A stretch of 12,580 nt of DNA from Sedimenticola sp. (GTDB taxonomy: Bacteria; Pseudomonadota; Gammaproteobacteria; Chromatiales; Chromatiaceae): the NCBI GenBank assembly GCA_027041035.1, contig JALULB010000005.1, positions 1 through 12,580 on the forward strand, written 5' to 3'. Made by a program: the position numbers and the translations under genes. The number at the start of each line of letters is the position of its first letter. The first letter of the stretch is position 1. Under the pieces are notes generated by a model. It was given only the letters and a program-made list of their open reading frames with translations. It did not search any database and was not told the origin of the DNA. This document shows positions 3 to 12,580 of this stretch, one piece after another.

Positions 3-1631
3 CTGGGCTATCTTGGGGTATTTCGGATCCCGTGGCTGGCGGAGGCGTCTGGCGTCTTCTTTTTTGCCGCCGGGATCGTGTTTCTGTTGCGTCTACGTAC
101 TCGCCTGCACCTGCCGCCGGACTGGCCGCTGTGGATGCTGATTCCCCTACTCAGCTTGTTGCTGCTGGTGATCGGCAAGTCCTGCTATTTCGATGGCGGT
201 TTCAACAACCACGATGATCTGCGCAGTATCGCGCTGACCGGAGCCTTCGCGGCCAACGCTCTGAAACCGGCGTTTCCGACCGATCTGTCGATCCCGATCA
301 GCTATTCCTATTATGCCTATGAATGGAGCGCCTATCTGTATCGGGCCGTGCGAGGTATTGGTCTGCCATCGCTGCCGGTATTGTTGGTCAATCTGGCCTT
401 GGTGGCGTTCTTCTATCGCCTGCTGGTGGATATCGGAAGAAAGCTGATTTGCGGTTTCTCCCTGCATCACTATCTGCTGCTGACATCGATTCTGACATTT
501 TACGGCTTCGATTATCTGCATGACCCGGTATGGTCCGCGCGGCATCTGGAATGGTGGAATGATCACCAATTGACGCAGTTCAGCAGTTATCTGCACTGGA
601 CGAGTCAGTATCTCTTTGCCGCTGGCCTGGCCTTGTATGCCTTTGTCCACCTGCGTGATTTCCTCGATTCCGGCGAGACACGTGATGCTTGGTGGTTTCT
701 GATTCTTCATGCGATCAGCGCGGGCATCGGCGCGATCGTCTTTGTTTGGTCTACTTGGGCCATCCTGGCCTATATCCTGATACGCCTGATCGTCGGCGAC
801 CGGCGCGCGCTGTGGCGACGCTTGCTGAAGTTGGTCCCACGCGCCGTGCTGGTCATCTTGCTGCTGATGCTGCCCGTGGTCTTCGCCTTTGTCGGTCGCG
901 AGGTGATCGTGTCGTTCTCGATCTGGCCGCATTTCTGGTTCCATTCGCAGGGTGAAAGCCAGCATGCGCTGCTGTTCAATCTGTGGGTGACATTACAGGA
1001 ACTCGGGCCGTTTCTGTTCGCCGGCCTGTTACTGATTCCGTTCGGCCGGTGGCTCGATCGGCAACGCGATGGCAGCGGTTTCGGCCAGCTGTCGATCTAT
1101 CTTTTCGCGTTATTGCTGATTTCGTTCTTTTCCACCAGCCCCTATTTTGATTGGTTTACCCGCGGCATTTTACTGCTGGTGATCATGGCGGCCTTTTATA
1201 TCACGGCGTTATTGGCGCCACTCGTCGACAGCCGGCATCCACTGTTGCTGTCGATTTTCGCCTTGATACTGGCGCCACAGCTGTTCAATGCTTTCCTGGA
1301 GCACGACTTTCGCCGCCAGCAATGCCGCCCGGCCAACCAGTTCTCTCATCAGATCAATGCCGGCGTGCCATTGGATAGCGTGATCTTCTATCCCGGGTCG
1401 ACACAGGGCATGCTGGGTATCGCCATGGCCGGGCGCGCGGCATTGGCGCCGGGCGCGAGCGATTATCTGAAAACCTATCGCAATACCGAATCGTTTCTGC
1501 ATGAACGGATCGGTTGGTCACACCCTTTCGAACCTTGTCGGCGAACAGCCTTCGGCGAGAGCACGCCGGGTGGCGGCTATGTCCGTCTGGTCGATGGCAA
1601 GGCGGAGTACATGGAGTGCGCGGATGAATAG
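3..1631 (+). CDS. Polytopic membrane protein, possible GT-C-type glycosyltransferase (5' partial)
   Basis: The reading frame is open to the left edge (from base 3), so the true start lies outside; GTG at 78 is unlikely to be the start because coding, hydrophobic sequence continues upstream. About 542 residues are visible. There are roughly 11-12 hydrophobic segments, then a soluble C-terminal tail of about 110 residues from around 1300 on. An Asp-Asp pair in a polar loop after an early membrane segment (bases 213-218, in FNNHDDLRS) is the kind of acidic motif found in the first outer loop of GT-C glycosyltransferases, which use lipid-phosphate sugars outside the membrane. The link to GT-C is inference: no family signature is decisive. 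An O-antigen polymerase or other polysaccharide membrane protein is the alternative. It overlaps the next gene by 8 bases, so the two are probably translationally coupled. The GT2 and GtrA genes further down fit a GT-C partner. Confidence 0.72.
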   Translation: MGYLGVFRIPWLAEASGVFFFAAGIVFLLRLRTRLHLPPDWPLWMLIPLLSLLLLVIGKSCYFDGGFNNHDDLRSIALTGAFAANALKPAFPTDLSIPISYSYYAYEWSAYLYRAVRGIGLPSLPVLLVNLALVAFFYRLLVDIGRKLICGFSLHHYLLLTSILTFYGFDYLHDPVWSARHLEWWNDHQLTQFSSYLHWTSQYLFAAGLALYAFVHLRDFLDSGETRDAWWFLILHAISAGIGAIVFVWSTWAILAYILIRLIVGDRRALWRRLLKLVPRAVLVILLLMLPVVFAFVGREVIVSFSIWPHFWFHSQGESQHALLFNLWVTLQELGPFLFAGLLLIPFGRWLDRQRDGSGFGQLSIYLFALLLISFFSTSPYFDWFTRGILLLVIMAAFYITALLAPLVDSRHPLLLSIFALILAPQLFNAFLEHDFRRQQCRPANQFSHQINAGVPLDSVIFYPGSTQGMLGIAMAGRAALAPGASDYLKTYRNTESFLHERIGWSHPFEPCRRTAFGESTPGGGYVRLVDGKAEYMECADE

Positions 1632-2706
1632 TTTCTGGCCGGGCAGACGGGTGCTCGTCACGGGGCACACCGGCTTCAAGGGCGGTTGGCTGGTCTTGCT
1701 GCTGCATCGTCTGGGCGCGCGCGTCAGCGGTTATGCCTTGCCGGCCGAGGAGCGATCACTGTATCGCCAGGCGGGTATCGCCGAGCTGTTGGAAGCCGAA
1801 TGGCTGGAGGATCTGCGTGACGAAAGCGCGCTCCGGCGGGCATTGCTGGACGGTCGGCCGGAGGTGGTGATTCATCTTGCGGCCAGGGCGCTGGTGCGTG
1901 AATCCTACGACCAGCCGGTCGAGACCTTCGATACCAATATACTCGGCAGCGCGCGTTTGCTGCAGGCGCTGCGTTTTTCGGCTTCGACGAAGGCCTGTGT
2001 GATGGTCACGTCGGACAAGGTGTATGAAAACCATGAATGGCCGCATCCCTATCGTGAGAGCGATTCACTGGGGGGGCGGGACCCATACAGCGCTAGCAAG
2101 GCCGCGATGGAACTTGTTGTGGCGGCCATGCGTCAGTCGTTCTTCTCCGCCGGGAATGTCACCGGCATAGCCACCGCGCGCGCGGGTAATGTGATTGGCG
2201 GTGGTGACTGGGCGAAGGATCGTCTGTTGCCGGATATCGCCGAGAGCCTGGCGAACGATGAGCCGATGCTGTTGCGTCACCCCGAGGCGGTACGCCCATG
2301 GCAGCATGTGCTGGAGCCATTGACAGGTTATCTGCGTCTGGCACGGTGCCTGATCGAACGGCCCGGTGAGTTTCGCGAGGCGTGGAATTTTGGTCCCTGG
2401 ATGCAGCAACGTATCAGCGTCGGCGAGGTGTTGTCACGCAGTCGGCACTACTGGGATGGCGTGGAGTTACGTGTTCAGCGTGTCGACGATGCTGGCAAGG
2501 TCGAACACCAGGAGTTGAATCTGGATATCTCGAAGAGTGTCACTCGACTTGGCTGGCGACCGCGACTGGATTTCGACGAGGCGCTGGCCTGGACACTGGG
2601 TTGGTACCGTCGGTATTACCGGGAGGATGGAACAGGTTCAGCCCCGCGGGCGCATTGCCTGGAGCAGATCGAGGACTATCTGGCGATGGAGGAGTCCGAA
2701 AGATGA
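1624..2706 (+). CDS. rfbG: CDP-glucose 4,6-dehydratase
   Basis: Converts CDP-D-glucose to CDP-4-keto-6-deoxy-D-glucose with bound NAD+, the second step of the CDP-3,6-dideoxyhexose pathway (rfbG, also ddhB), in the cytoplasm. The 360-residue product has the usual family length. It shows the Rossmann motif GHTGFKG at residues 14-20, the S130-D131-K132 triad that CDP-glucose dehydratases carry where dTDP-glucose dehydratases have T-D-E, and the Y155-x3-K159 pair (DPYSASK). The ATG at 1624 is chosen because the protein then begins [20 protein letters not shown], as relatives do; an upstream in-frame ATG at 1501 lies inside the previous gene and would add 41 unrelated residues. The start overlaps the previous stop (ATGAATAG) and its own stop overlaps the next start (ATGA). 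A run of seven G lies at 2070-2076 inside the gene. Confidence 0.95.
2688..2694 (+). promoter_or_regulatory. Strong ribosome binding site for the rfbH-like gene
   Basis: GGAGGAG sits 8 bases before the ATG at 2703, close to an ideal Shine-Dalgarno sequence and spacing. It matters because it supports the long form of the RfbH protein with its extra N-terminal domain. The internal ATG at 2952 (residue 84), where an ordinary RfbH would begin, has no comparable site in front of it. Confidence 0.75.
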
Positions 2707-4256
2707 GTGAATTCCGTGAGGGCGCGGTGGTCGCTCTGGCCGGGCCGCTGCGCGATGCCCGGCATGCCCTGGTGCTTGGCGAGGTTCGCGACGGCGTATG
2801 CGAGGCCGTGCTGCTGACTGAAGACGCGGCTGTCGGCGATGAGCCAATACCCGCCGAGGCCGGTGCTCCAGCCCTGTATGTTCTCCCCGATGCCCGCCTG
2901 CTCATGCGTGCTAGTGAGATGGATTCCGTGGTCGGCCAGCTCGACAGTGCCATGCTGGAAACCGTTTGGCGAGGCCTGGTGCTGGCGGATACGCGCCGCC
3001 ATTTCAGGGCAAAATCGACGGCGGAAAGCGTCGCCGGCGACACGCGCGTGCGCGTTTCCGGTCGAGTCTATGACGACAGCGATGTCTGTGCTCTTGTCGA
3101 TTCTTCACTCGATTTCTGGCTGACCAGCGGACGTTATCATGCCCGATTCGAAAAGCAGTTCGCGCGCTTTCTTGGCGTGAAGCACGTGTTGCCGGTCAAC
3201 TCCGGTTCGTCGGCCAATCTGCTTGCGGTGGCGACCCTGACCTCGCCGAAGCTGGGTGATCGCGCCTTGCGTCCCGGCGATGAGGTGATCAGCGTGGCCG
3301 CCGGTTTTCCGACCACGGTGAACCCGTTGCTTCAGTACCGACTGGTGCCGGTGTTCGTCGATATCGAGTTGCCGACCTATAACGTCGACCCAGCACGGTT
3401 GGAGGCGGCGGTATCCGATAAAACCCGCGCGATCATGCTGGCGCATACCCTGGGGAATCCTTTCAATCTCGATGCGGTCAAGGCGGTGGCGGAGAAACAT
3501 GACCTATGGCTGATCGAGGATTGTTGCGATGCGCTGGGTTCGACCTACAACGCGCAAAAGGTGGGTACCTTTGGTGATCTGGCCACTTTCAGTTTCTACC
3601 CGGCACACCATATCACCATGGGCGAGGGTGGCGCGGTGGTGACCAATAGCGCGGAACTCAAACGCATCGCCGAATCCTTCCGTGACTGGGGGCGCGATTG
3701 CTGGTGCGATACCGGTTGCGACAACACCTGCCGCAAGCGCTACGCCTGGCAACTCGGGGATCTGCCCGCGGGCTATGACCACAAGTACACCTATTCGCAC
3801 GTCGGTTACAATCTGAAGATCACCGATATGCAGGCGGCGATCGGTTGCGCGCAGATGGAGCACCTGCCCGGCTTCATCGAACGGCGGAAACATAACTTTC
3901 GCTATCTGCGCGATGCCCTTGAGCCACTCTCCGGGCACTTGTTGTTGCCCGAACCAACCGCGAAAAGCGAGCCATCGTGGTTCGGTTTCCCGCTGATGTT
4001 GAAGGAGGGTGAACGCGGCGCGTTGTTGACTTACCTCGAAGAAAAGCGGATCGATAGCCGGCTGCTATTCGGCGGGAATCTGATCCGCCAACCCTATTTT
4101 TCCGATCAGCGCTATCGTGTTCATGGTGACCTGCCGAATACCGACCGAACGATGAACGATGCGCTGTGGCTGGGGGTATATCCTGGATTGGACTCGGCCC
4201 GGATCGATAGCGTGGTCGATGCGTTAAACGGCTTCTTTGTCGGAGGTTGGGGATGA
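2703..4256 (+). CDS. rfbH: RfbH-type CDP-4-keto-6-deoxyglucose 3-dehydrase (E1) with extra N-terminal PemK/MazF-like domain
   Basis: E1 removes the C3 hydroxyl of CDP-4-keto-6-deoxyglucose using PMP and a [2Fe-2S] cluster (rfbH/ddhC/ascC). The aminotransferase-fold part is clear: the internal-aldimine lysine is replaced by histidine (H302 in [13 protein letters not shown]), the mark of dehydrases, and four cluster cysteines are present, C275, C333, C335 and C343. These equal the Yersinia E1 positions H220, C193, C251, C253 and C261 plus a constant 82, so the catalytic part is complete. The odd part is about 82 additional residues at the front of this 517-residue protein (family about 435). 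They resemble PemK/MazF: REGAVVAL, an R20 in RHALVL, T39 after a hydrophobic strand (VLLTED), and a closing V-x-G-x-L-x(4)-L segment (residues 77-85). That domain call is inference. The start is supported by GGAGGAG and ATGA coupling to rfbG; the end overlaps the next gene by 4 bases. Confidence 0.93.
4242..4246 (+). promoter_or_regulatory. Ribosome binding site for the ThDP enzyme gene
   Basis: GGAGG lies 6 bases before the ATG at 4253 and fixes that start over a TTG at 4247, which overlaps the edge of this site. The ATGA overlap with the rfbH-like stop codon gives translational coupling. Confidence 0.7.
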
Positions 4257-6055
4257 CGATGCGGGTTGCCGACTATATTGCCGACCACTTGGCGAGGGCC
4301 GGGCTGGATACCGTGTTCATGGTGACGGGTGGCGGCGCAATGCATCTGAACGATGCTTTTACCCGGCATCCCGGTTTGGAATGCTTCTTCAATCATCATG
4401 AACAGGGTTGCGCTATCGCCGCCGAGGGTTATGCGCGGGTGGCACGGCGTCCGGCGGTCGTCAATGTCACGACGGGTCCGGGCGGTACCAATGCGATCAG
4501 CGGTGTGTTTGGCGCGTGGACCGATTCGGTTCCAATGATCGTGATCTCCGGTCAGGTCAAGCGTGCAACCATGGCGCGCTACTGCGACCCCGTGCCGCGC
4601 CAGCTCGGTGATCAGGAGATCGATATTGTTCCATTGGTCGCGTCGATCACTAAATATGCGGCCTTGGTCAGCGAGCCGGAATCTATTCGCTATCATCTCG
4701 ACCGGGCGTTAAAGGAAGCGAGCAGCGGACGCCCCGGCCCTGTTTGGCTTGACGTGCCTATCGATGTGCAGTCGGCGCGCGTCGATCCGGCGCGGCTGGA
4801 TGGGGCGATCGTTTCGCAAGGCGAGACTCATGGTGATATGGAAACAGCAGTCGCGGCAATACTTGATGCTATCGGCCAGGCCGAGCGTCCGGTCATCCTG
4901 CCGGGTACCGGGGTCTGGTCGGCTGGCCAGCGCGAGAATCTGCTCACGCTGGCCGAAAGGTTGTGCATCCCCGTCGCTACCGCCTGGAACGCGCATGACC
5001 TCGTCGCCAATGATCATCCCTGCTATGCAGGCAGACCCGGGACGGTCGGTGATCGAGCCGGTAACTTCGTGGTGCAGAGCGCCGATCTGATTATCGTGCT
5101 CGGTTGTCGCTTGAATATCCGTCAGATCAGCTATAACTGGCGGCAGTTCGGACGAGCCGCGCGCAAGATCATGGTGGATGTCGACCCGGCTGAATTGCGT
5201 AAGCCTACCCTGGATATCGACTTGCCTATTGAGGCGGATCTCAAGCAGTTGATGCCCGCGTTGGTGGCCGGGACAGCGGGTCGTGAGCAGCCTGATTTTT
5301 CTGCTTGGCTGGCCTGGTGCCGTGAACGAGTCAGTGGCAACCCGGTGGTACAGGAGCGATACCGCGAGCAGGAAAGCCCAATCAATCCCTATGTGTTGAT
5401 GGATGCACTTTCGCCTCGGCTGGCTGATGATGAAGTGATCGTCTGCGCCAACGCAACCGCGGCGGTGGTTGCTTTCCAGGTGCTCGAACTGCGCGCGGGC
5501 CAACGCTTGTTCTCCAATTCTGGTAGCGCTTCGATGGGCTATGACCTGCCGGCGGCTCTCGGCGCCAGCGTGGCGCGTGGTGGGCGCCGCGTCCTGTGTC
5601 TCGCGGGTGATGGCAGCATCATGATGAATCTACAAGAGCTACAGACTATTGCAAATTACCGTTTGCCGGTAAAGGTGCTGCTGTTGAACAACAGTGGCTA
5701 CCTGTCGATACGACAGACGCAGACGGCTTATTTTAGCGATAACCTTGCGGGCTTCGATGCAAGTAGCGGCGTCAGTCTGCCGGACTTCGAAAGCCTGATG
5801 ACCGGATTTGGTCTGCCTTTCCGGCGTTGCGACAATCACACTGGGCTGGTTGATGCTTTCGAATGGCTATTGGCGATGGATGGTCCGGGGGTGTGCGAGT
5901 TCATGCTTGATCCCGAGCAAGCCTTTGAACCCAAGCTGGCATCAAAGATGTTGCCGGATGGACGCATGAGTACGCCGCCATTGGAGGATATGTATCCATT
6001 CATGTCGCGAGACGAATTGACGCGTAACCTGAAAATTCCACCGATTGATGAGTAA
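4253..6055 (+). CDS. Thiamine diphosphate-dependent acetolactate synthase-like enzyme (possible YerE-type two-carbon transferase)
   Basis: A 600-residue enzyme of the acetolactate synthase/pyruvate oxidase family. The N-terminal PYR domain has the cofactor-activating glutamate E50 ([16 protein letters not shown]) and a [10 protein letters not shown] loop; the C-terminal PP domain has the Mg/ThDP motif GDGS (residues 452-455) ending in N479-N480. Family members decarboxylate a 2-keto acid such as pyruvate and transfer the resulting acyl-type unit. Beside rfbG and rfbH, the closest known parallel is YerE, which adds acetyl to C4 of a CDP-3,6-dideoxy-4-keto-hexose in yersiniose synthesis; similar ThDP proteins are common in polysaccharide clusters. 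The ThDP family assignment is firm, the sugar substrate is inferred from context. True housekeeping acetolactate synthase is unlikely: no regulatory subunit is nearby and the surroundings are all sugar genes. The start is ATG 4253, overlapping the previous stop. Confidence 0.88.
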
Positions 6056-6059
6056 AGCG

Positions 6060-6065
6060 AGAGGA
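6060..6065 (+). promoter_or_regulatory. Ribosome binding site for the NeuB-like gene
   Basis: AGAGGA is located 2-7 bases before the ATG at 6068, in the 12-base gap after the ThDP enzyme stop. The spacing is slightly short but no better start exists. Confidence 0.5.
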
Positions 6066-6067
6066 TT

Positions 6068-7171
6068 ATGAGTCTTTCCGAGGCAAAGAAGATATTTGAT
6101 GGCCTGTTTGTTCTGGAGGTCGCAAACAACCATTGGGGTTCGGTCGAGCGTGGTCTGAAGATCATAGAGGTCTACCAGCGTGTGGTGCGTTTCAACAGCG
6201 TGCGCTCGGCGATCAAACTGCAACTGCGTGATGTGGATAGCTTTATTCATGAGGATTATCGCGATCGCGAGGACATACGCTATATCAAAAAGACCCTGGA
6301 TACGCGTATGTCGTTTGATGACTATGCGACCTTGGTTCGAGCGATACGACAGAACGGATGCATTGCGATGGCAACGCCATTCGATGAGAAATCCGTGGAT
6401 GATTGCGTTGCCCTTGGCATTCCGATTCTGAAGGTGGCGAGCTCTGATATTAACGACTGGCCGCTGTTGGAGAAGATCGCCTCGACTCGTCTTCCCGTAT
6501 CGGTTTCCACTGGAGGGTCATCCGAAAAAGATGTCGACGATATTGTTAGTTTCTTCACTCGACGCCAGATCCCTCTTGCTGTTAATCATTGTGTTTCGCT
6601 CTATCCATCTGAGGATTACGACTTGGAACTGAATCAGATCGACTATCTGAGTGACAAGTATCCTGACGTGGTGATTGGGTTGTCTACCCATGAATATCAC
6701 GACTGGAGTTCGTCGATCATGATGGCTTATGCAAAGGGAGCGCGTACCTTTGAACGTCACGTCGATATCGAGATGGATGGTATACCTGTATCCCCGTATT
6801 GTTCTCTGCCTCATCAGATTGATGAGTGGTTTAAATCCTGGAGCAAGGCGAAGGAGATGTGCGGGGCTCCCGGTACTCAAAAGCGGAACCCTAAGCGGGA
6901 AGAGATCAAGTATTTAGATGCGCTGGTGCGTGGAGTGTATGCGGCACGAGATCTTCCAAAAGGGTATGTGTTCGAAAAAGATGAATTGAACGAGGCGATC
7001 AGTATGAGAATACCTTTGTTGAAAGGGCAGATATCTTGCCGAGAATTGATGAGTGGCGAACGTATTAATCGTGATATCAAAGCTGGTGATCCGATTATGA
7101 TTGACGACGTAGATACTCCCTATGCCGAGCGCGACGAATTGAAACAATTGATCTATGAGCGCGGGATTTAA
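6068..7171 (+). CDS. NeuB-family (sialic acid synthase-like) PEP-condensing enzyme with SAF-like C-terminus
   Basis: The 367-residue product matches the NeuB fold: a TIM barrel followed by a small SAF (antifreeze-like) domain. Visible landmarks are E17 and N21-H22 (LEVANNHWGS), K50-x-Q52 (IKLQLRD), TPFDE at 103-107, K122 (LKVASSD), STGG at 147-150, H174-C175 (VNHCVSLYP), GLSTH at 204-208 and ERH at 229-231, then a SAF-like stretch from about residue 295 (RGVYAARDLPKG). Known members join phosphoenolpyruvate to a sugar aldehyde, giving nonulosonic acids. Family landmarks are conserved but altered: typical GLSDH is GLSTH and typical EKHF is ERHV, so the acceptor may differ. No amino-sugar enzymes and no CMP-sugar synthetase are in the window, so ordinary sialic or legionaminic acid synthesis is not supported. 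The base composition is more AT-rich than in the genes before it. Family firm, substrate unknown. Confidence 0.87.
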   Translation: MSLSEAKKIFDGLFVLEVANNHWGSVERGLKIIEVYQRVVRFNSVRSAIKLQLRDVDSFIHEDYRDREDIRYIKKTLDTRMSFDDYATLVRAIRQNGCIAMATPFDEKSVDDCVALGIPILKVASSDINDWPLLEKIASTRLPVSVSTGGSSEKDVDDIVSFFTRRQIPLAVNHCVSLYPSEDYDLELNQIDYLSDKYPDVVIGLSTHEYHDWSSSIMMAYAKGARTFERHVDIEMDGIPVSPYCSLPHQIDEWFKSWSKAKEMCGAPGTQKRNPKREEIKYLDALVRGVYAARDLPKGYVFEKDELNEAISMRIPLLKGQISCRELMSGERINRDIKAGDPIMIDDVDTPYAERDELKQLIYERGI

Positions 7172-7173
7172 GT

Positions 7174-8232
7174 TTGGCGGTGACTCGGTTAAGGCCTGTA
7201 TTTGGCGGCATGGATGAGCTGCTTGAACGCGGAGAGCCACTGTTTCGTGCGCTTTCCGGGGCGCACATCTTTCTGACCGGTGGAACGGGTTTTTTTGGTC
7301 GATGGTTGTTGGAAGCGGTTCATTCAGCGGGTGCTCGCTTAGGAGTCGATATTTGTGTAACCGTGATCAGTCGTGACCCAAGGCGTTTTGCGTCGGCGGT
7401 ACCACACTTGGCCGATGCGTCCTGGCTAACACTTGAGTTGGGTGATGTACGTGACTTTGATTTGCCTCGCCAACATTTTAGTCATCTTATTCACGCGGCT
7501 ACCGATACCTCGGCACGGGCTGCCGCTAAGCCTCTAGAACGTTTAGACAGCATGGTCATGGGTACTCGACGAGTGCTGGATTTTGCTGTCGATTGCCATA
7601 TTCAAGACGGCCTGCTGACTAGTTCGGGTGCGGTTTATGGCCACACCGAAGCGGGTAGAAACGGTGTGTCTGAGTTGAGTCTGGCGGCTTGTGATTGTTC
7701 GAATCCAGACTCGGATTACGCTGAAGGTAAACGTATGGCCGAACTGATGTGCGCGTTGGTTGGGCGTGAAAACGGATTGAAGATGCGAATCGCTCGTTGT
7801 TTCTCATTCGCTGGTCCTGGTTTACCCCTTCGAGGACATTTTGCGGTTGGCAATTTTGTTGCGGATGCGTTGGCGGGGAATGTCATACGAGTGCGAGGTG
7901 ACGGTCGCCCAATTCGGTCCTATCTCTATGCTGGGGATCTGGTGCTTTGGTTGCTGACAATTTTGCTACGAGGTGATGCTTTACGCCCTTACAACGTTGG
8001 ATCGGATCGGCCGATGTCGATACGCGAGATTGCTGAACGTGTGCGTGATTTGTTGGCGCCAGCTACCTCTGTAGTGATTCAGACTGAGATGACGGGTGGC
8101 AGTGTGAGCTATTACCTGCCAAACATCGAACGGGCAAGACGGGAGCTTGGATTGGATGTATGGACCGATTTCGATGATGCGGTCCACTATATGGCGGATT
8201 GGTCGCGATCGAAATCTGAGGGTTTGAAATAA
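7174..8232 (+). CDS. NAD-dependent epimerase/dehydratase family protein (extended SDR)
   Basis: An extended short-chain dehydrogenase/reductase acting on a nucleotide sugar. It has the glycine motif TGGTGFFG near the N-terminus, the serine in TSSGAVYG and the Y-x3-K pair in DYAEGKRM, followed by the substrate-side segments typical of the family (RSYLYAGDL, PYNVGSDRPMS). Proteins of this kind with TGGTGFFG and SSGAVYG occur widely in polysaccharide clusters; their exact reactions are mostly not established. Here it could reduce or epimerise a keto group on the CDP-sugar, the role YerF plays after YerE, but this is inference. The start is uncertain: TTG 7174 (352 residues), GTG 7180 or ATG 7210 (340 residues). 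None has a good Shine-Dalgarno site; TTG or GTG keeps the tight spacing of the operon, while ATG would leave a 38-base gap. The stop overlaps the next start by one base (TAATG). Confidence 0.87.
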   Translation: MAVTRLRPVFGGMDELLERGEPLFRALSGAHIFLTGGTGFFGRWLLEAVHSAGARLGVDICVTVISRDPRRFASAVPHLADASWLTLELGDVRDFDLPRQHFSHLIHAATDTSARAAAKPLERLDSMVMGTRRVLDFAVDCHIQDGLLTSSGAVYGHTEAGRNGVSELSLAACDCSNPDSDYAEGKRMAELMCALVGRENGLKMRIARCFSFAGPGLPLRGHFAVGNFVADALAGNVIRVRGDGRPIRSYLYAGDLVLWLLTILLRGDALRPYNVGSDRPMSIREIAERVRDLLAPATSVVIQTEMTGGSVSYYLPNIERARRELGLDVWTDFDDAVHYMADWSRSKSEGLK

Positions 8233-8990
8233 TGGATGAAATGCAAGTAACACTGGCTGGTCGTCGGGCTCTGGTGACGGGTGGTAGGCGTGGCATTGGT
8301 CGGGCGATTGTGCTGGCATTGGCGCGGTCTGGAGCGAGCGTAGTGGCAGCAGCACATAGCGAAGATGATGCGGGCTTGTTGCGTCAGGCAGAAGAGGAAG
8401 GTTTGGCAATTGAATATTGTTCCGTTGACCTTAATGACCGTGGCTCCCGCGCCGATATGATCAATAATATATTAGCCGACGGCGATGTAGATATTCTTGT
8501 TAACAATGCCGGGGCTCAGGTGCGGAGACCGTTGCTTGAGTATGGCCTGGAACAGTGGGATACGGATATGGAGCTATTGCTAAGTTCGATGTTTGATTTG
8601 TCCCAGGCGTTGGCGCGAGAAATGGTGGCACGTGGCTATGGACGCATTATTAATCTGTCGTCAATCAGTGGTTTTCAAGGAGCACGAAATATTGCGGGCT
8701 ATACCACAGCGAAGCATGCCGTTATTGGGCTAACCAAGGCATTGGCGAACGAACTTGGCATATACGGCGTAAATGTTAATGCCATTGCTCCGGGAATCTG
8801 CGAGACTGACATGACGACGGATGTGACTACCAATAAAGAGCATGCCGAGATCATCCGTGGGCGTATACCGTTAGGCCGCTTCGCTACTCCGGAGGACGTT
8901 GCAGGTCCAGTGCTTTTCCTCTGTAGCGATGCAGCGGCTTATGTGCATGGACAGACGATGTTGGTTGATGGCGGTTGGTTGGCGAGGTAG
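8232..8990 (+). CDS. Classical SDR-family oxidoreductase, KduD/gluconate 5-dehydrogenase-like
   Basis: A 252-residue NAD(P)-dependent oxidoreductase of normal classical-SDR length. It carries the cofactor motif TGGRRGIG (residues 16-23), the structural NNAG, the catalytic S144, Y157 and K161 (GYTTAK), and the C-terminal VDGGWLAR seen in KduD-type enzymes. Family members oxidise or reduce sugar-acid and keto-sugar carbons such as C5 of 2-keto-3-deoxygluconate. In this cluster it most likely acts on a keto group of the growing sugar, perhaps working with the adjacent radical SAM enzyme or on the ThDP-derived branch; the substrate is not visible from the sequence. A fatty-acid FabG role is less likely given the setting and the KduD-like C-terminus. 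It begins at ATG 8232, sharing one base with the preceding TAA. Confidence 0.9.
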   Translation: MDEMQVTLAGRRALVTGGRRGIGRAIVLALARSGASVVAAAHSEDDAGLLRQAEEEGLAIEYCSVDLNDRGSRADMINNILADGDVDILVNNAGAQVRRPLLEYGLEQWDTDMELLLSSMFDLSQALAREMVARGYGRIINLSSISGFQGARNIAGYTTAKHAVIGLTKALANELGIYGVNVNAIAPGICETDMTTDVTTNKEHAEIIRGRIPLGRFATPEDVAGPVLFLCSDAAAYVHGQTMLVDGGWLAR

Positions 8991-8995
8991 GGGCA

Positions 8996-10000
8996 ATGCG
9001 CATACAAGCTAAGGAACTACGCTGCAAGACGCGTGAATCTCTAGAGAAAGTCATTCCTCTTCCTGCACCCTATGTTGTATATATCGACCCGACAAATGCT
9101 TGTAACTTTCGTTGTGCATTCTGCCCAACTAGTGATAAGCAGTTGCTCGCGGATGTTGGGCGAGATACCCGTATGATGCGTTATGAGACATTTACTCGTG
9201 TCGTGGATGAATTGAAGGCGTTTGATGTCCAATTTCGCCTGATCAATTTGTACAAAGATGGCGAGCCATTGTTGAATAAGCGATTTATTGATATGGTCAA
9301 GTATTTGCGGGACGCGGGTATTACTGATCGTATCTGGACAAAAACTAATGGTGCCTTGCTTGATCCGCGGCTTAATCAGCAGTTAGCTGATTCTGGGCTG
9401 AATCATATTTGTATCTCGGTTGAGGCTGTTGACAAAAAAGGTTATAAGCGTATCGCGGATGTGGATATCGATTATCAGAAGTTTCGTGATAATGTGAGTG
9501 ATCTATATCAGCGCAGTGGAAACTGTGAAATATATATAAAGATCGCCGATAGCGGGTTAAGTAAAGAACAGATTGAAAAATTTTACGCGGATTTTGAAGG
9601 GATTAGCGATAAGATTGCGGTAGAAAAATTGATGGGTTGGTCGAATTCGGACGCCAAAGATTTTACACTTGGCACCGATCCTGATACCTACGATGGGGGG
9701 GTGTTCGAGGATAAGCAGGTTTGTGCCTACCCCTTTTACGTGCTTGCTGTGAATGCTACTGGATTGGTATCCGTATGCGGAAACGATTGGTCACAAAAAG
9801 CGCTAGCTGGCGACAATCGTAAAATGACGCTAAAAGAGATATGGAACGGCGAGCAATTATATCAGCTACGCAGGGATCATCTACAGTTGGATCGATCAAA
9901 GGTCGCCGCTTGCGCTGATTGCTACTATCTGAAGATAGTGCCAGACAATATCGATTCATATCGACTAAAGATTCTCGATAAGATCAGTAAAGGTAGGTAG
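8996..10000 (+). CDS. Radical SAM enzyme with twitch/SPASM-like auxiliary cysteine region
   Basis: A 334-residue radical SAM protein. The C-x3-C-x2-C motif that holds the SAM-binding [4Fe-4S] cluster is C36-C40-C43 (TNACNFRCAFCP). Near the C-terminus lie C243-x12-G-x4-C261 and C306-x2-C309, the first half of a SPASM pattern; the later C-x5-C-x3-C part is missing, so a single auxiliary cluster, as in twitch domains, is likely. Such enzymes abstract hydrogen atoms from substrates; in sugar pathways they catalyse dehydrogenation, deoxygenation or epimerisation at otherwise unreactive carbons. The substrate here is unknown and presumably a CDP- or lipid-linked sugar. ATG 8996 is chosen over an earlier in-frame TTG at 8975 because GAGG at 8984-8987 precedes it and the earlier start would overlap the SDR gene. 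A G7 run lies at 9695-9701. The gene is AT-rich relative to rfbG and rfbH. Confidence 0.88.
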   Translation: MRIQAKELRCKTRESLEKVIPLPAPYVVYIDPTNACNFRCAFCPTSDKQLLADVGRDTRMMRYETFTRVVDELKAFDVQFRLINLYKDGEPLLNKRFIDMVKYLRDAGITDRIWTKTNGALLDPRLNQQLADSGLNHICISVEAVDKKGYKRIADVDIDYQKFRDNVSDLYQRSGNCEIYIKIADSGLSKEQIEKFYADFEGISDKIAVEKLMGWSNSDAKDFTLGTDPDTYDGGVFEDKQVCAYPFYVLAVNATGLVSVCGNDWSQKALAGDNRKMTLKEIWNGEQLYQLRRDHLQLDRSKVAACADCYYLKIVPDNIDSYRLKILDKISKGR

Positions 10001-10001
10001 C

Positions 10002-10967
10002 ATGCCAAATTCCCGTAAGAAAATTAGCGTATTGACGGCCTGTTTCAATGAAGAGGAGAATATTTTTGAGATATATTCTCAGGTTAAGGAGCAGTTCGAT
10101 AAGTTGCCGCAGTATGATTATGAACACGTTTTTATCGACAACGATTCTGGTGATGGGACAGTGGATATTTTGCGGGATATTGCTGCAAATGATTCGGCGG
10201 TGAGAGTGATTGTCAATTCGCGTAATTTTGGGCATGTGAGATCGCCGTATCATGGGATATTGCAATGTCGCGGAGAAGCGGTTATCTACATCGTTGCGGA
10301 TTTGCAAGATCCACCAGAGATGATACCTCGATTTCTAGAGAAATGGGAGGAGGGTTACAAGATAGTTATTGGTGTCAAGGAAGGTAGCGAAGAGAATTAT
10401 TTGATGTATAGGATCCGTTCATTGTATTACGATATCCTGGAGCGTATCTCTGAGGTTGATCAGATAAAAAATTACACGTGTTTTGGGCTATATGACCAAT
10501 CATTTGTCGCTCTGTTGCGTACCTTGGATGATCCCTACCCCTATCTTCGCGGCCAGGTAGCAGAGTTTGGGTTCAATCGATATGCCGTTCCCTATAAACA
10601 GCCTCGGCGTAAGGCTGGAGAAACAAAAAATAATTTTTATACACTATACGATATGGCAATGAATGGTTTTGTTAATCATTCGAAAGTGCCGTTGCGATTG
10701 GCAGGGCTGGTCGGGTTTATTAGTGCTGGAGTAAGTTTTCTTACAGGGTTTTTTTATTTAATCTACAAGCTCATGTTCTGGGATGAATTTGACCTTGGTA
10801 TCGCACCAATGGTAATAGGGTTTTTCTTTTTCTCGTCGATCCAGTTGATCTTTATTGGCATGATAGGAGAGTATGTTGGCGCTGTGTACACCCAAGTTAA
10901 AAAGCGGCCGTTGGTGATTGAACGTGAGCGCATCAATTTTGATAAAGATCGAGAGGACGAAAGTTGA
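10002..10967 (+). CDS. Family 2 glycosyltransferase, DPM1/GtrB/ArnC-like polyprenyl-phosphate sugar synthase
   Basis: A 321-residue GT-A fold enzyme with two C-terminal membrane segments (about residues 227-260 and 264-295). The N-terminal half has the family start SVLTACFNEEENI, the IDNDSGDGT loop and the acidic ADLQDPPEM motif typical of dolichol/undecaprenyl-phosphate glycosyltransferases. These move a sugar from a nucleotide donor to polyprenyl phosphate on the inner face of the membrane. Here the donor is plausibly the CDP-sugar made by the cluster, though known GtrB and ArnC enzymes use UDP-sugars, so that is a guess. A GtrA-family gene lies one gene downstream, as is common for this type. 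It starts one base after the radical SAM stop, with an AAAGG-AGG-like region just upstream, and ends overlapping the rfbF start by 4 bases. It is strongly AT-rich: 13 G/C of 60 in 10621-10680. Confidence 0.92.
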   Translation: MPNSRKKISVLTACFNEEENIFEIYSQVKEQFDKLPQYDYEHVFIDNDSGDGTVDILRDIAANDSAVRVIVNSRNFGHVRSPYHGILQCRGEAVIYIVADLQDPPEMIPRFLEKWEEGYKIVIGVKEGSEENYLMYRIRSLYYDILERISEVDQIKNYTCFGLYDQSFVALLRTLDDPYPYLRGQVAEFGFNRYAVPYKQPRRKAGETKNNFYTLYDMAMNGFVNHSKVPLRLAGLVGFISAGVSFLTGFFYLIYKLMFWDEFDLGIAPMVIGFFFFSSIQLIFIGMIGEYVGAVYTQVKKRPLVIERERINFDKDREDES

Positions 10968-11737
10968 CTAAGGCTGTCATCCTTGCCGGCGGACTTGGCA
11001 CCCGGTTGTCGGAAGAAACGCATCTCAAGCCCAAACCGATGGTCGAGATCGGTGGGCGCCCCATTTTGTGGCACATCATGAAGATCTATGCGGCTCACGG
11101 AATCAACGAGTTCATCATATGTACCGGCTACAAGGGCTATATAGTAAAGGAATACTTCGCGAACTATCCCTTGCATATGTCCGATGTCACCTTTGATTTT
11201 TCCAAGGACAGCGTCGAAGTACATCAGCGTTATGCCGAGCCTTGGCGGATAACGTTGGTCGATACCGGTATGGATTCGCAGACCGGAGGACGCTTGGGCC
11301 GGGTCAGGGAGTATATTGGCAACGAGGATTTTTGCTTTACCTATGGTGATGGCGTTGCTGATATCGACGTGAGTAAGCTGATCGGTTTTCATCGCGCGCA
11401 TGGCGCGCGAGCGACTGTTACCGGGGTCCAACCGCAAAGCCGTTTTGGTACGCTGGAATTCGATGGCGACAAGGTGACGCAGTTCGAGGAAAAGCCGCCT
11501 GGAGAAGCAGGTTGGATCAATGGCGGTTTCTTTGTGCTTTCTCCCAAGGTACTGGATCTGATCGATGGAGATCAAACCATATGGGAGTCGGGTCCGCTAC
11601 AGCGCTTGGTCGCCGACGAGCAGCTTCGAATTTTCAAGCACAAGGGTTTCTGGAGACCTATGGATACACTGCGCGACAAGCATCATCTTGAAGCATTGTG
11701 GCAAACCGGGGAGGCGCCATGGAAGTGCTGGAGCTAG
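10964..11737 (+). CDS. rfbF: Glucose-1-phosphate cytidylyltransferase
   Basis: Makes CDP-glucose from CTP and glucose-1-phosphate, the first step of the CDP-3,6-dideoxyhexose route (rfbF/ddhA). The 257-residue product has the same length as the enterobacterial enzyme and aligns throughout: LAGGLGTRLSEET with the nucleotide-binding loop, KPKPMVEIGGRPILWHIM, GYKGYIVKEYFANY, LVDTGMDSQTGGRL, FTYGDGVAD, FEEKP, INGGFF and the closing APWKCW. The start is TTG at 10964, giving MTKAVILAGG, which matches the family N-terminus; no ATG is available nearby. TTG overlaps the GT2 stop (TTGA), and GAGAGG at 10951-10956 may serve as ribosome binding site. In Salmonella and Yersinia this gene is next to rfbG and rfbH; here it is placed after seven other genes, at the edge of a sharp rise in GC content (36 of 60 in 10981-11040). 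Confidence 0.96.
   Translation: MTKAVILAGGLGTRLSEETHLKPKPMVEIGGRPILWHIMKIYAAHGINEFIICTGYKGYIVKEYFANYPLHMSDVTFDFSKDSVEVHQRYAEPWRITLVDTGMDSQTGGRLGRVREYIGNEDFCFTYGDGVADIDVSKLIGFHRAHGARATVTGVQPQSRFGTLEFDGDKVTQFEEKPPGEAGWINGGFFVLSPKVLDLIDGDQTIWESGPLQRLVADEQLRIFKHKGFWRPMDTLRDKHHLEALWQTGEAPWKCWS
11708..11714 (+). promoter_or_regulatory. Ribosome binding site for the GtrA-family gene
   Basis: GGGGAGG is 4 bases before the ATG at 11719, inside the end of rfbF. It favours this start over an in-frame TTG at 11698 and explains the 19-base overlap between the two genes. Confidence 0.7.
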
Positions 11738-12135
11738 CTGACGATATACAGCCCGTGAAATGGCATATCGAGTTTCTGCGCTACGGCTTTGCCAGTGCCT
11801 TGGCGTTGTTGGTGGATGCTGGCAGTCTGTACTTAATCACGGAGTACCTTGGCGTCGATTACCTGTTGTCGGCGGCGATCGGGTTCTTGCTCGGCATGGT
11901 GACGATCTACGTATTGAGTATCCGCTGGGTGTTTGCCAGGCGGACGCTGGAGGACCAGCATAGGGAGATCGTGCTATTCGTGCTGATCGGCCTGGTCGGT
12001 ATGGCGATCAATGAGGCGGGGATGTACGTCTTTACCGAGATGGCTGGGTTTCACTACATGGTTTCAAAGTTGTTTATTACCGGTGTGGTTTTCCTGTGGA
12101 ATTTTGGTATCCGCAAATGGTTGTTGTTTAGATGA
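11719..12135 (+). CDS. GtrA-family membrane protein, likely lipid-linked sugar flippase component
   Basis: A small integral membrane protein of 138 residues with four predicted membrane helices, the normal GtrA size and layout. It shows the family start EFLRYGFASALALLVDAGS, an arginine-rich cytoplasmic turn (IRWVFARR) between helices 2 and 3, and the closing NFGIRKWLLFR. GtrA proteins are thought to move polyprenyl-phosphate-linked sugars across the inner membrane for use by an outer-facing glycosyltransferase. The GT2 gene one position upstream is the natural partner that would make the lipid-linked sugar, and the membrane protein at the left end of the window could be the acceptor enzyme; both pairings are inference. 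The stop is followed 12 bases later by the next gene. Confidence 0.9.
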   Translation: MEVLELADDIQPVKWHIEFLRYGFASALALLVDAGSLYLITEYLGVDYLLSAAIGFLLGMVTIYVLSIRWVFARRTLEDQHREIVLFVLIGLVGMAINEAGMYVFTEMAGFHYMVSKLFITGVVFLWNFGIRKWLLFR

Positions 12136-12147
12136 AGTTGAACGCTT

Positions 12148-12580
12148 ATGAGTAAAGAAAATCCCGTGGCGGTTATCATTGGCGCCGGCCCCGCTGGGCT
12201 GACCGCGGCATGGGAGTTGCTGCGGCGGACCGATGTTAAACCGCTGGTCTTCGAGATGACCCAGGATACCGGGGGTATCTCGAAGACGGTCAACTACAAG
12301 GGCAATCGTATCGACATCGGAGGGCACCGGTTCTTTTCAAAGTCGGATCGGGTGATGGATTGGTGGCTGGATGTACTACCGGTCGAAGCGGGTGATCAGA
12401 CGGCCCAACTGGATATCCATTACCAGGGTAAGCAACGCCAGCTGGATCTGGACGATCAGCGACCCGATCCCGAGAAAACCGACGAGGTTTTCTTGATTCG
12501 CCAGCGCTTGTCGCGGATTTTTTATCTACGGCGTTTCTTCGATTACCCGCTGTCGCTGAGTTTGACGACATTGCGTAACC
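12148..12580 (+). CDS. FAD-dependent oxidoreductase, UDP-galactopyranose mutase/protoporphyrinogen oxidase-like (3' partial)
   Basis: Only the first 144 codons are in the window, open to the right edge. The N-terminus has the dinucleotide-binding motif G12-A-G-P-A-G17 ([16 protein letters not shown]), an acidic residue E36 at the end of the second strand that would bind the FAD ribose, and [12 protein letters not shown], a flavin-contacting segment typical of the amine oxidase/UDP-galactopyranose mutase-like proteins in polysaccharide clusters. The family includes isomerases and oxidases; which reaction this one catalyses cannot be said from the fragment. The start ATG 12148 has only a weak upstream site (GAAG at 12134-12137). 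Its GC content is back to the high level seen at the left of the window. Confidence 0.85.

What the first reader, a model, noticed from the sequence alone, without database searches (positions are those of the whole stretch)
1624..10000. Candidate pathway to a new branched or chain-extended CDP-sugar
RfbG and RfbH give a CDP-3,6-dideoxy-4-keto-hexose intermediate. In known branched sugars (yersiniose; related erwiniose and caryophyllose) a ThDP enzyme then adds carbon at C4. Here the ThDP enzyme is followed without a gap by a NeuB-family synthase, two SDRs and a radical SAM enzyme. Two carbon-carbon bond-forming families plus a radical enzyme in one operon suggest a sugar with more carbons or changes than yersiniose. 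The NeuB homologue could condense PEP with the acyl branch or with a separate aldehyde.
Basis: inference. Interest (0 to 1): 0.72.

Follow-up and report, generated by a model that had tools for sequence, protein, structure and literature searches.

The report
NeuB-fed long-branch sugar pathway
This bacterial gene cluster looks like a pathway for a rare branched surface sugar in which an enzyme usually labelled a sialic-acid synthase instead makes the side chain that a vitamin-B1 enzyme then attaches to the sugar.

Summary
The genes are as described: an uninterrupted operon of RfbG, RfbH, a ThDP enzyme, a NeuB-family synthase, two SDRs and a twitch radical SAM enzyme, then GT2, RfbF and GtrA. 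Best reading: NeuB condenses PEP with a free aldehyde to a 2-keto-3-deoxy acid; the YerE/JanthE-like ThDP enzyme decarboxylates that acid and adds its 3-hydroxyacyl group to C4 of CDP-4-keto-3,6-dideoxyglucose, giving an erwiniose/caryophyllose type of side chain. Evidence: a ThDP gene accompanies this NeuB clade in 74 of 80 loci. Of 19 sampled genomes with such a ThDP gene, 18 hold NeuB, an HpaI-type aldolase or DmpFG; NeuB and the aldolases never share one of 135 loci. DmpFG makes 4-hydroxy-2-oxovalerate, a kind of donor that ErwE is reported to prefer. The window's ThDP groups with aldolase-linked ones. In 18 genomes no CMP-sialate-synthetase-type gene shares a contig with this NeuB. My searches found no paper stating this role, but three key papers were not held. 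No enzyme was assayed; the exact sugar is unknown. New variant of a known kind.

The parts
78..1631 (+). membrane protein, probable GT-C-type glycosyltransferase; frame is open back to the start of the contig, so it may be cut there
   Evidence: ORF; no Pfam family even at E 0.1; role inferred from hydrophobicity and neighbours
1624..2706 (+). RfbG, CDP-glucose 4,6-dehydratase
   Evidence: TIGR02622 432.7 bits over cut-off 278.45
2703..4256 (+). RfbH, CDP-4-keto-6-deoxyglucose 3-dehydrase, with about 90 extra N-terminal residues
   Evidence: NF011936 702.3 bits over cut-off 423; match begins at residue 94 of the frame scanned
4253..6055 (+). YerE/JanthE-like ThDP enzyme, predicted acyl transferase to C4
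   Evidence: TPP_enzyme N/M/C; 400.9 bits to JanthE 8rph; E50, D453, G454 and N480 in invariant columns of 10 relatives (their catalytic roles are recalled)
6068..7171 (+). NeuB-family synthase, predicted PEP + aldehyde to 2-keto-3-deoxy acid (ThDP donor)
7174..8232 (+). extended SDR (Epi), predicted reductase of the side-chain ketone; ATG alternative at 7210
   Evidence: PF01370; found in 39 of 80 NeuB loci; role inferred
8232..8990 (+). classical SDR, nearest NCBIfam models KduD (below cut-off), tailoring
   Evidence: 241-244.5 bits vs cut-offs 338.85 and 369; beside the radical SAM gene also in L110
8996..10000 (+). twitch-type radical SAM enzyme, BtrN/DesII-like, tailoring
10002..10967 (+). 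GT2, PgfS/ArnC-like, predicted transfer of the sugar to polyprenyl phosphate
   Evidence: PF00535; PgfS 186.8 bits, below cut-off 500; GT2 in 58 of 80 NeuB loci
10964..11737 (+). RfbF, glucose-1-phosphate cytidylyltransferase
   Evidence: TIGR02623 445.5 bits over cut-off 300.25
11719..12135 (+). GtrA-family membrane protein, predicted flippase
   Evidence: PF04138 79.9 bits

Best explanation
The operon makes a CDP-linked 3,6-dideoxyhexose with a long hydroxylated chain at C4. RfbF, RfbG and RfbH (with a reductase not seen among the window genes) make CDP-4-keto-3,6-dideoxyglucose. NeuB condenses PEP with a small free aldehyde R-CHO to R-CHOH-CH2-CO-COOH. The ThDP enzyme decarboxylates this acid and adds the R-CHOH-CH2-C(=O)- group to the C4 ketone. 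The extended SDR reduces the new side-chain ketone. The SDR + radical SAM pair then deoxygenates or epimerises a side-chain or ring carbon. GT2, GtrA and the membrane protein carry the sugar across the membrane by a Gtr-type route. Shown by sequence: gene identities, operon, linkage, replacement by aldolases. Inferred: each reaction, the substrates, the order of steps. Unknown: the aldehyde, and hence the chain length.
For: (1) Linkage: in 80 loci found with NeuB alone, 74 carry the ThDP gene, three of them as fragments at a contig end; it is the commonest neighbour of those scored, within 4 kb on the same strand in 71 of 80. In a 398-genome sample NeuB is in 11 of 19 ThDP genomes and 2 of 379 others; within the 37 RfbH genomes 11 of 17 against 0 of 20, p = 1.4e-5. 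(2) Replacement: of the 19 ThDP genomes, 8 have NeuB beside ThDP, 6 have an HpaI-type aldolase and/or DmpFG in the same locus, 4 have NeuB-cupin or DmpFG on another contig, 1 has none. No locus of 135 scanned has both NeuB and an aldolase. Three DmpG proteins pass the 4-hydroxy-2-oxovalerate aldolase equivalog and the one DmpF tested passes its own. (3) Phylogeny: the window ThDP forms a set with support 97 with two HpaI-linked ThDPs and one unassigned; six RfbH-linked ThDPs without any donor enzyme stand apart on a branch with support 99. (4) Chemistry in print: ErwE prefers 4-hydroxy-2-oxo acids and does not use pyruvate; MMAR_2332 is said to have a similar preference; caryophyllose carries a 1,3,4,5-tetrahydroxyhexyl chain at C4, i.e. 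C2' unsubstituted, as the model predicts; JanthE accepts 4-hydroxy-2-oxovalerate, with benzaldehyde as acceptor. (5) No CTP_transf_3 match shares a contig with this NeuB in 18 of 18 genomes, while the second, 28%-identical NeuB of two of them has such matches on its contig.
Against: No biochemistry on any NeuB of this clade was found. Six of 80 NeuB loci show no ThDP (L055, L079, L083, L097, L100, L107) and only three of these lie on contigs under 4.3 kb. Two genomes (G313, G498) have the NeuB-cupin type without a ThDP match, and L020 (G227) shows none in 16.9 kb. In G375, G382 and G434 NeuB-cupin and ThDP lie on different contigs, and in G310 DmpFG lies with RfbFGH on another contig than ThDP. 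G450 has a 58%-identical ThDP and no donor enzyme in 14.6 kb (genome 57% complete). Five of the six HpaI-type proteins match PF03328 weakly (25.7-36.8 bits, cut-off 25) and no NCBIfam model at E 1e-6; the sixth is below the HpaI equivalog cut-off (153.1 vs 368.8); one tested (L135) has no solved relative by sequence. The six donor-less ThDPs could not be tied to a sequenced YerE. I could not examine the known producers (M. marinum, P. atrosepticum, R. palustris) by sequence.
Confidence: 0.77

Rival explanations
1. NeuB belongs to a separate nonulosonic-acid (sialic, legionaminic, pseudaminic) pathway and only shares the locus.
For: It has the NeuB + SAF architecture and NeuB fold.
Against: Far below the NeuB and PseI equivalog cut-offs; no CTP_transf_3 match on its contig in 18 of 18 genomes (draft contigs, so nearness across contig breaks is not excluded), while NeuB paralogues in G659 and G661 have them on their contigs; ThDP in 74 of 80 loci.
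Confidence: 0.05
2. The ThDP enzyme adds acetyl from pyruvate (yersiniose type) and NeuB then condenses PEP with a carbonyl of the branched sugar itself.
Against: NeuB enzymes act on aldehydes, and an acetyl branch offers a ketone (established family chemistry, recalled); in other ThDP loci aldolases that make free 4-hydroxy-2-oxo acids stand where NeuB is missing; gene order varies.
Confidence: 0.06
3. ThDP makes an ordinary yersiniose-like sugar, and NeuB makes an independent ulosonic acid for the same polysaccharide.
For: Both could be glycan precursors.
Against: No CMP-sugar synthetase among the window genes; within the RfbH-positive genomes NeuB occurs only together with the strict-threshold ThDP; RfbH-linked ThDPs without a donor enzyme stand apart in the tree.
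Confidence: 0.06
4. The NeuB product is attached by ThDP not to the CDP-sugar but to another ketone or aldehyde acceptor made in the locus (for example a cyclitol).
For: RfbH is seen in 29 and RfbG in 23 of 80 NeuB loci (many loci are cut by contig ends); a DHQ-synthase-like gene is present in 7 of 80.
Against: In this window RfbF, RfbG and RfbH are in the same operon.
Confidence: 0.06

Closest known systems
Erwiniose pathway (ErwE, Pectobacterium atrosepticum)
   Same: ThDP enzyme couples a hydroxy-functionalised 2-oxo acid to CDP-4-keto-3,6-dideoxyglucose (review PMC12247030, part of text read)
   Different: Window has NeuB, not DmpFG, as the presumed donor maker; the ErwE locus itself could not be examined, so its donor source is unknown here
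Caryophyllose (MMAR_2332, Mycobacterium marinum lipooligosaccharide)
   Same: Long 4-C side chain with unsubstituted C2' on a 3,6-dideoxy-xylo-hexose, the pattern the NeuB route predicts
   Different: Donor-making enzyme not found in the papers seen nor by sequence here; the window adds SDR and radical SAM
Yersiniose pathway (YerE)
   Same: CDP-4-keto-3,6-dideoxyglucose as acceptor, ThDP enzyme at C4
   Different: Two-carbon branch from pyruvate, so no donor synthase is needed
JanthE (PDB 8rph)
   Same: Homologous ThDP enzyme, 400.9 bits over residues 3-591; accepts 4-hydroxy-2-oxovalerate
   Different: JanthE has a CDG motif and groups with a DmpFG-linked ThDP; the window has GDG and lies in the NeuB/HpaI part of the tree
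N-acetylneuraminate / pseudaminate synthases (NeuB, PseI)
   Same: Fold and family; PEP-dependent condensation (family knowledge)
   Different: Below equivalog cut-offs, no CMP-sugar synthetase on the contig, partnered with ThDP

Membership tests
CDP-3,6-dideoxyhexose entry pathway (RfbF/G/H) | RfbF, RfbG and RfbH over curated cut-offs in one operon | tested here: met
   445.5, 432.7 and 702.3 bits, all over cut-off
CDP-3,6-dideoxyhexose entry pathway (RfbF/G/H) | RfbI-type reductase partner of RfbH | not tested
   None among the window genes identified; genome not searched for it
YerE-like ThDP enzymes | TPP_enzyme N/M/C domains, homology to a characterised member, catalytic Glu and ThDP motif | tested here: met
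YerE-like ThDP enzymes | ketone-accepting carboligation | not testable with these tools
   needs an enzyme assay
Erwiniose-type (long-branch) pathway | ThDP enzyme with its own 4-hydroxy-2-oxo acid source in the locus | tested here: inconclusive
   NeuB in that place is inferred, not shown; no DmpFG among the window genes, DmpFG present in 3 other ThDP loci
N-acetylneuraminate synthase (NeuB equivalog) | TIGR03569 over cut-off | tested here: not met
   113.2 bits vs 399.65
Nonulosonic-acid pathway | CMP-sugar synthetase (CTP_transf_3) with NeuB | tested here: not met
   No PF02348 match on the NeuB contig in 18 of 18 genomes; own genome none but 63% complete
NeuB superfamily (PF03102 + SAF) | both domains and the fold | tested here: met
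Twitch radical SAM enzymes acting on sugars or cyclitols (BtrN, DesII, SpeY) | CX3CX2C and one four-Cys auxiliary cluster site | tested here: met
   C36/C40/C43 and C243/C261/C306/C309 invariant in 4 sequences; the naming of the twitch pattern is recalled
Twitch radical SAM enzymes acting on sugars or cyclitols (BtrN, DesII, SpeY) | action on a sugar or cyclitol | not testable with these tools

The most novel reading that the evidence does not exclude
NeuB-family enzymes have a second, widespread role: making 2-keto-3-deoxy acids that are not kept as acidic sugars but are spent as acyl donors by a partner ThDP enzyme, interchangeable with HpaI-type and DmpFG aldolases. In this organism the resulting long-branch CDP-sugar is further remodelled by a radical SAM + SDR pair, giving an undescribed monosaccharide. 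Many genes annotated as sialic-acid synthases in environmental bacteria would then be misread.
Probability: 0.55. Interest if true: 0.78.

Novelty: new variant of a known kind. Interest (0 to 1): 0.63.

Why it matters
It offers a general answer to where the side chain of long-branched sugars comes from: a dedicated condensing enzyme makes the donor. The held review describes the donors of ErwE and MMAR_2332 but, in the parts read and the term search made, not their source. The idea makes simple predictions: which clusters give two-carbon or longer branches, and where PEP carbons end up. It also warns that NeuB-like genes in environmental genomes, for example in Accumulibacter, where NeuB homologues are used to predict nonulosonic acids (PMC8053191, abstract and one section read), may belong to branched-sugar pathways. 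It suggests a function for the structural-genomics protein 3g8r and a natural donor for JanthE, whose physiological substrates are reported as not identified.

Tried and rejected
Sialic-type acid pathway: rejected, see rivals. Chance neighbours: rejected by the RfbH control. Of 21 RfbH loci from the 20 RfbH genomes without a strict ThDP match, 8 had a weaker ThDP (2 with an HpaI-type gene, 6 with none) and 13 had no ThDP and none of NeuB, HpaI or DmpG over threshold; L180 had one weak DmpG-like hit (23%, 52 bits) below the 100-bit threshold. The genomes are related, so the Fisher values overstate independence: the 11 NeuB+ThDP genomes fall in 6 genera.

Led nowhere: Rfam, tRNA, promoter and terminator scans (no clear excess over shuffles), plasmid searches (ThDP: 23 records at 30-32% identity, ilv-type where annotated; NeuB: one 28.7% hit). 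PADLOC gave viperin matches to the radical SAM enzyme (best 50.6 bits over residues 31-183), which I take as general radical SAM resemblance. No solved relative of one donor-less ThDP (L186) was found at E <= 1e-90. A search of a further group returned 48 genomes; all 14 ThDP genomes in it were already among the 19, so it added no count.

Literature: searches listed no paper that ties NeuB to ThDP branching; only titles and abstract starts were seen for most, and searches listed fewer papers than they matched (67, 21, 1,058, 67). Passages only were seen of PMC12188165, PMC7821131, PMC5706390, PMC4703794, PMC9912281, PMC4403928, PMC13354803, PMC12507525, PMC12395582, PMC4753412, PMC4743980 and PMC12016536. 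Three papers cited by the review (PMC9306805, anie.202404045, anie.202403535) are not held, so this role of NeuB may already be in print there or in a thesis.
Full report

IS THE NEUB-ThDP PAIR REAL? I scanned the named genome collection with that NeuB alignment. ThDP was not part of the query. A ThDP gene is present in 74 of 80 loci, counting three fragments at a contig end (L034, L050, L080). In 71 of 80 it is within 4 kb on the same strand, the most frequent of the neighbours scored; GT2 follows with 45 and FkbM with 43. Six loci lack it: L083, L097 and L100 on contigs under 4.3 kb, and L055, L079 and L107 on longer ones. In a separate sample of 398 genomes of the window's phylum (the same handles recur in the three searches), NeuB (E <= 1e-40) occurs in 13 genomes, the ThDP gene (E <= 1e-105) in 19 and RfbH (E <= 1e-120) in 37. 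NeuB and ThDP coincide in 11; Fisher p = 6.6e-15, or 1.4e-5 within RfbH-positive genomes (11 of 17 against 0 of 20). The genomes are related (6 genera among the 11), so the p-values are only a guide.

THE REPLACEMENT PATTERN. If NeuB makes the ThDP donor, ThDP loci without NeuB should have another donor maker or use plain pyruvate. I examined the loci of all 19 ThDP genomes. Beside ThDP: NeuB or NeuB-cupin in 8 (G000, G321, G275, G281, G307, G355, G363, G446). Same locus: an HpaI-type aldolase (PF03328) in G424, G325, G371 and G482, and DmpG with DmpF in G482, G517 and G324, 6 genomes in all. On another contig: NeuB-cupin in G375, G382 and G434, and DmpFG beside RfbFGH in G310 (L200). None: G450 (57% complete; 14.6 kb seen). 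So 18 of 19 genomes have one of the three (tally). The three DmpG proteins score 370-386 bits against the 4-hydroxy-2-oxovalerate aldolase equivalog (cut-off 286), and the one DmpF tested 375.9 against acetylating acetaldehyde dehydrogenase (cut-off 282.25). The HpaI-type proteins are weaker: 25.7-36.8 bits against PF03328 (cut-off 25) for five, 99.9 for the one of L137, which stays below the HpaI equivalog (153.1 vs 368.8). Over 135 scanned loci NeuB never co-occurs with HpaI or DmpG. As a control I took 21 RfbH loci from the 20 RfbH genomes without a strict ThDP match: 13 have no ThDP and none of the three donor makers; 8 have a weaker ThDP (228-343 bits), 2 of them with an HpaI-type gene.

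THE TREE. A 47-row ThDP tree (29 rows from loci outside the named scan, 17 of the 80 named loci with L050 dropped as truncated, and JanthE; quick IQ-TREE, LG+G4) sets the six donor-less, RfbH-linked ThDPs apart on a branch with support 99. JanthE pairs with the DmpFG-linked L139 (59% identity, support 95), and L139 and L140 show the CDG motif that JanthE is reported to have. The window ThDP sits in a set (support 97) with two HpaI-linked ThDPs (L135, L136) and L134. So close ThDP relatives work beside either NeuB or an aldolase. Switches are few: all labels need 11 changes, 7 being the least possible, and the HpaI label needs 3. The simplest common denominator of the neighbours is their product, R-CHOH-CH2-CO-COOH. 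The root is a midpoint, so the direction of change is not shown.

CHEMISTRY IN PRINT. The 2025 review PMC12247030 (parts 1 and 2 of 5 and the first part of its reference list read, plus term passages; [quoted passage not shown] MMAR_2332 (caryophyllose) has a similar preference. Caryophyllose is 3,6-dideoxy-4-C-(D-altro-1,3,4,5-tetrahydroxyhexyl)-D-xylo-hexopyranose (PMC5706390, passage). The missing hydroxyl at C2' is what a PEP- or pyruvate-derived methylene would leave (my inference). JanthE accepts 4-hydroxy-2-oxovalerate (with benzaldehyde) and its physiological substrates are not identified (PMC12188165, passages). The word NeuB does not occur in the review, and I found no paper on the source of these acids among those listed by searches; three cited papers that might hold it could not be read.

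NOT A SIALIC-ACID PATHWAY. I looked at 18 genomes: G000 and the genomes behind 17 of the 80 named loci, chosen by me among loci with ThDP. NeuB and ThDP lie on one contig in all 18. PF02348 (CMP-sugar synthetases, including the Kdo type) matches in 17 of 18 genomes, never on that contig. In two of them a second NeuB, only 28% identical, has PF02348 matches on its contig (G659:C30 and G661:C14). The window's own genome gave no PF02348 match but is incomplete, and contigs are draft, so nearness across a break is not excluded.

VERDICT. Class of product and joint pathway: well supported. NeuB as donor maker: likely (0.77), not shown. Identity of the aldehyde and the final sugar: unknown. It works like the erwiniose and caryophyllose systems; by sequence its ThDP enzyme belongs to the YerE/JanthE-like branching group, with a donor maker for which I found no description.

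Noticed in passing
window 12148-12580 and contig L017 12148-13747: The amine-oxidase-like gene after GtrA changes frame near 12572-12579 against its 528-aa homologue in L034: a frameshift or an assembly error.
   Followed up: partly
L040, L045, L050, L062, L076, L085, L099; also L133: Seven of 80 NeuB loci carry a DHQ-synthase-like gene and six an FGGY kinase, and the HpaI-type locus L133 has a DHQ-synthase-like gene too: possibly a carbocyclic branch or acceptor.
   Followed up: partly
L019, L020, L022-L032: A longer NeuB type (about 500 aa) carries a cupin-like C-terminal part (named from motif, not tested); ThDP lies in the same locus in 7 of 13 such loci.
   Followed up: partly
PDB 3g8r (Chromobacterium violaceum): A structural-genomics protein labelled spore-coat polysaccharide protein E is the nearest solved relative of this NeuB and may share its function.
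   Followed up: no
L057, L061, L079, L092, L096: Five Accumulibacter loci carry this NeuB clade, four with ThDP. A paper that predicts nonulosonic acids from NeuB homologues in this genus left its most divergent sequences out of its tree; whether these are the same genes was not tested.
   Followed up: no
window 2703-4256: RfbH has about 90 residues before the start of the family match; some relatives have long ORFs too (550-610 aa by mechanical ORF calling).
   Followed up: no
window 9001-11000: G+C falls to 0.43-0.44 over the radical SAM and GT2 genes against 0.56-0.62 over the first 6 kb, in keeping with a swapped cassette.
   Followed up: partly
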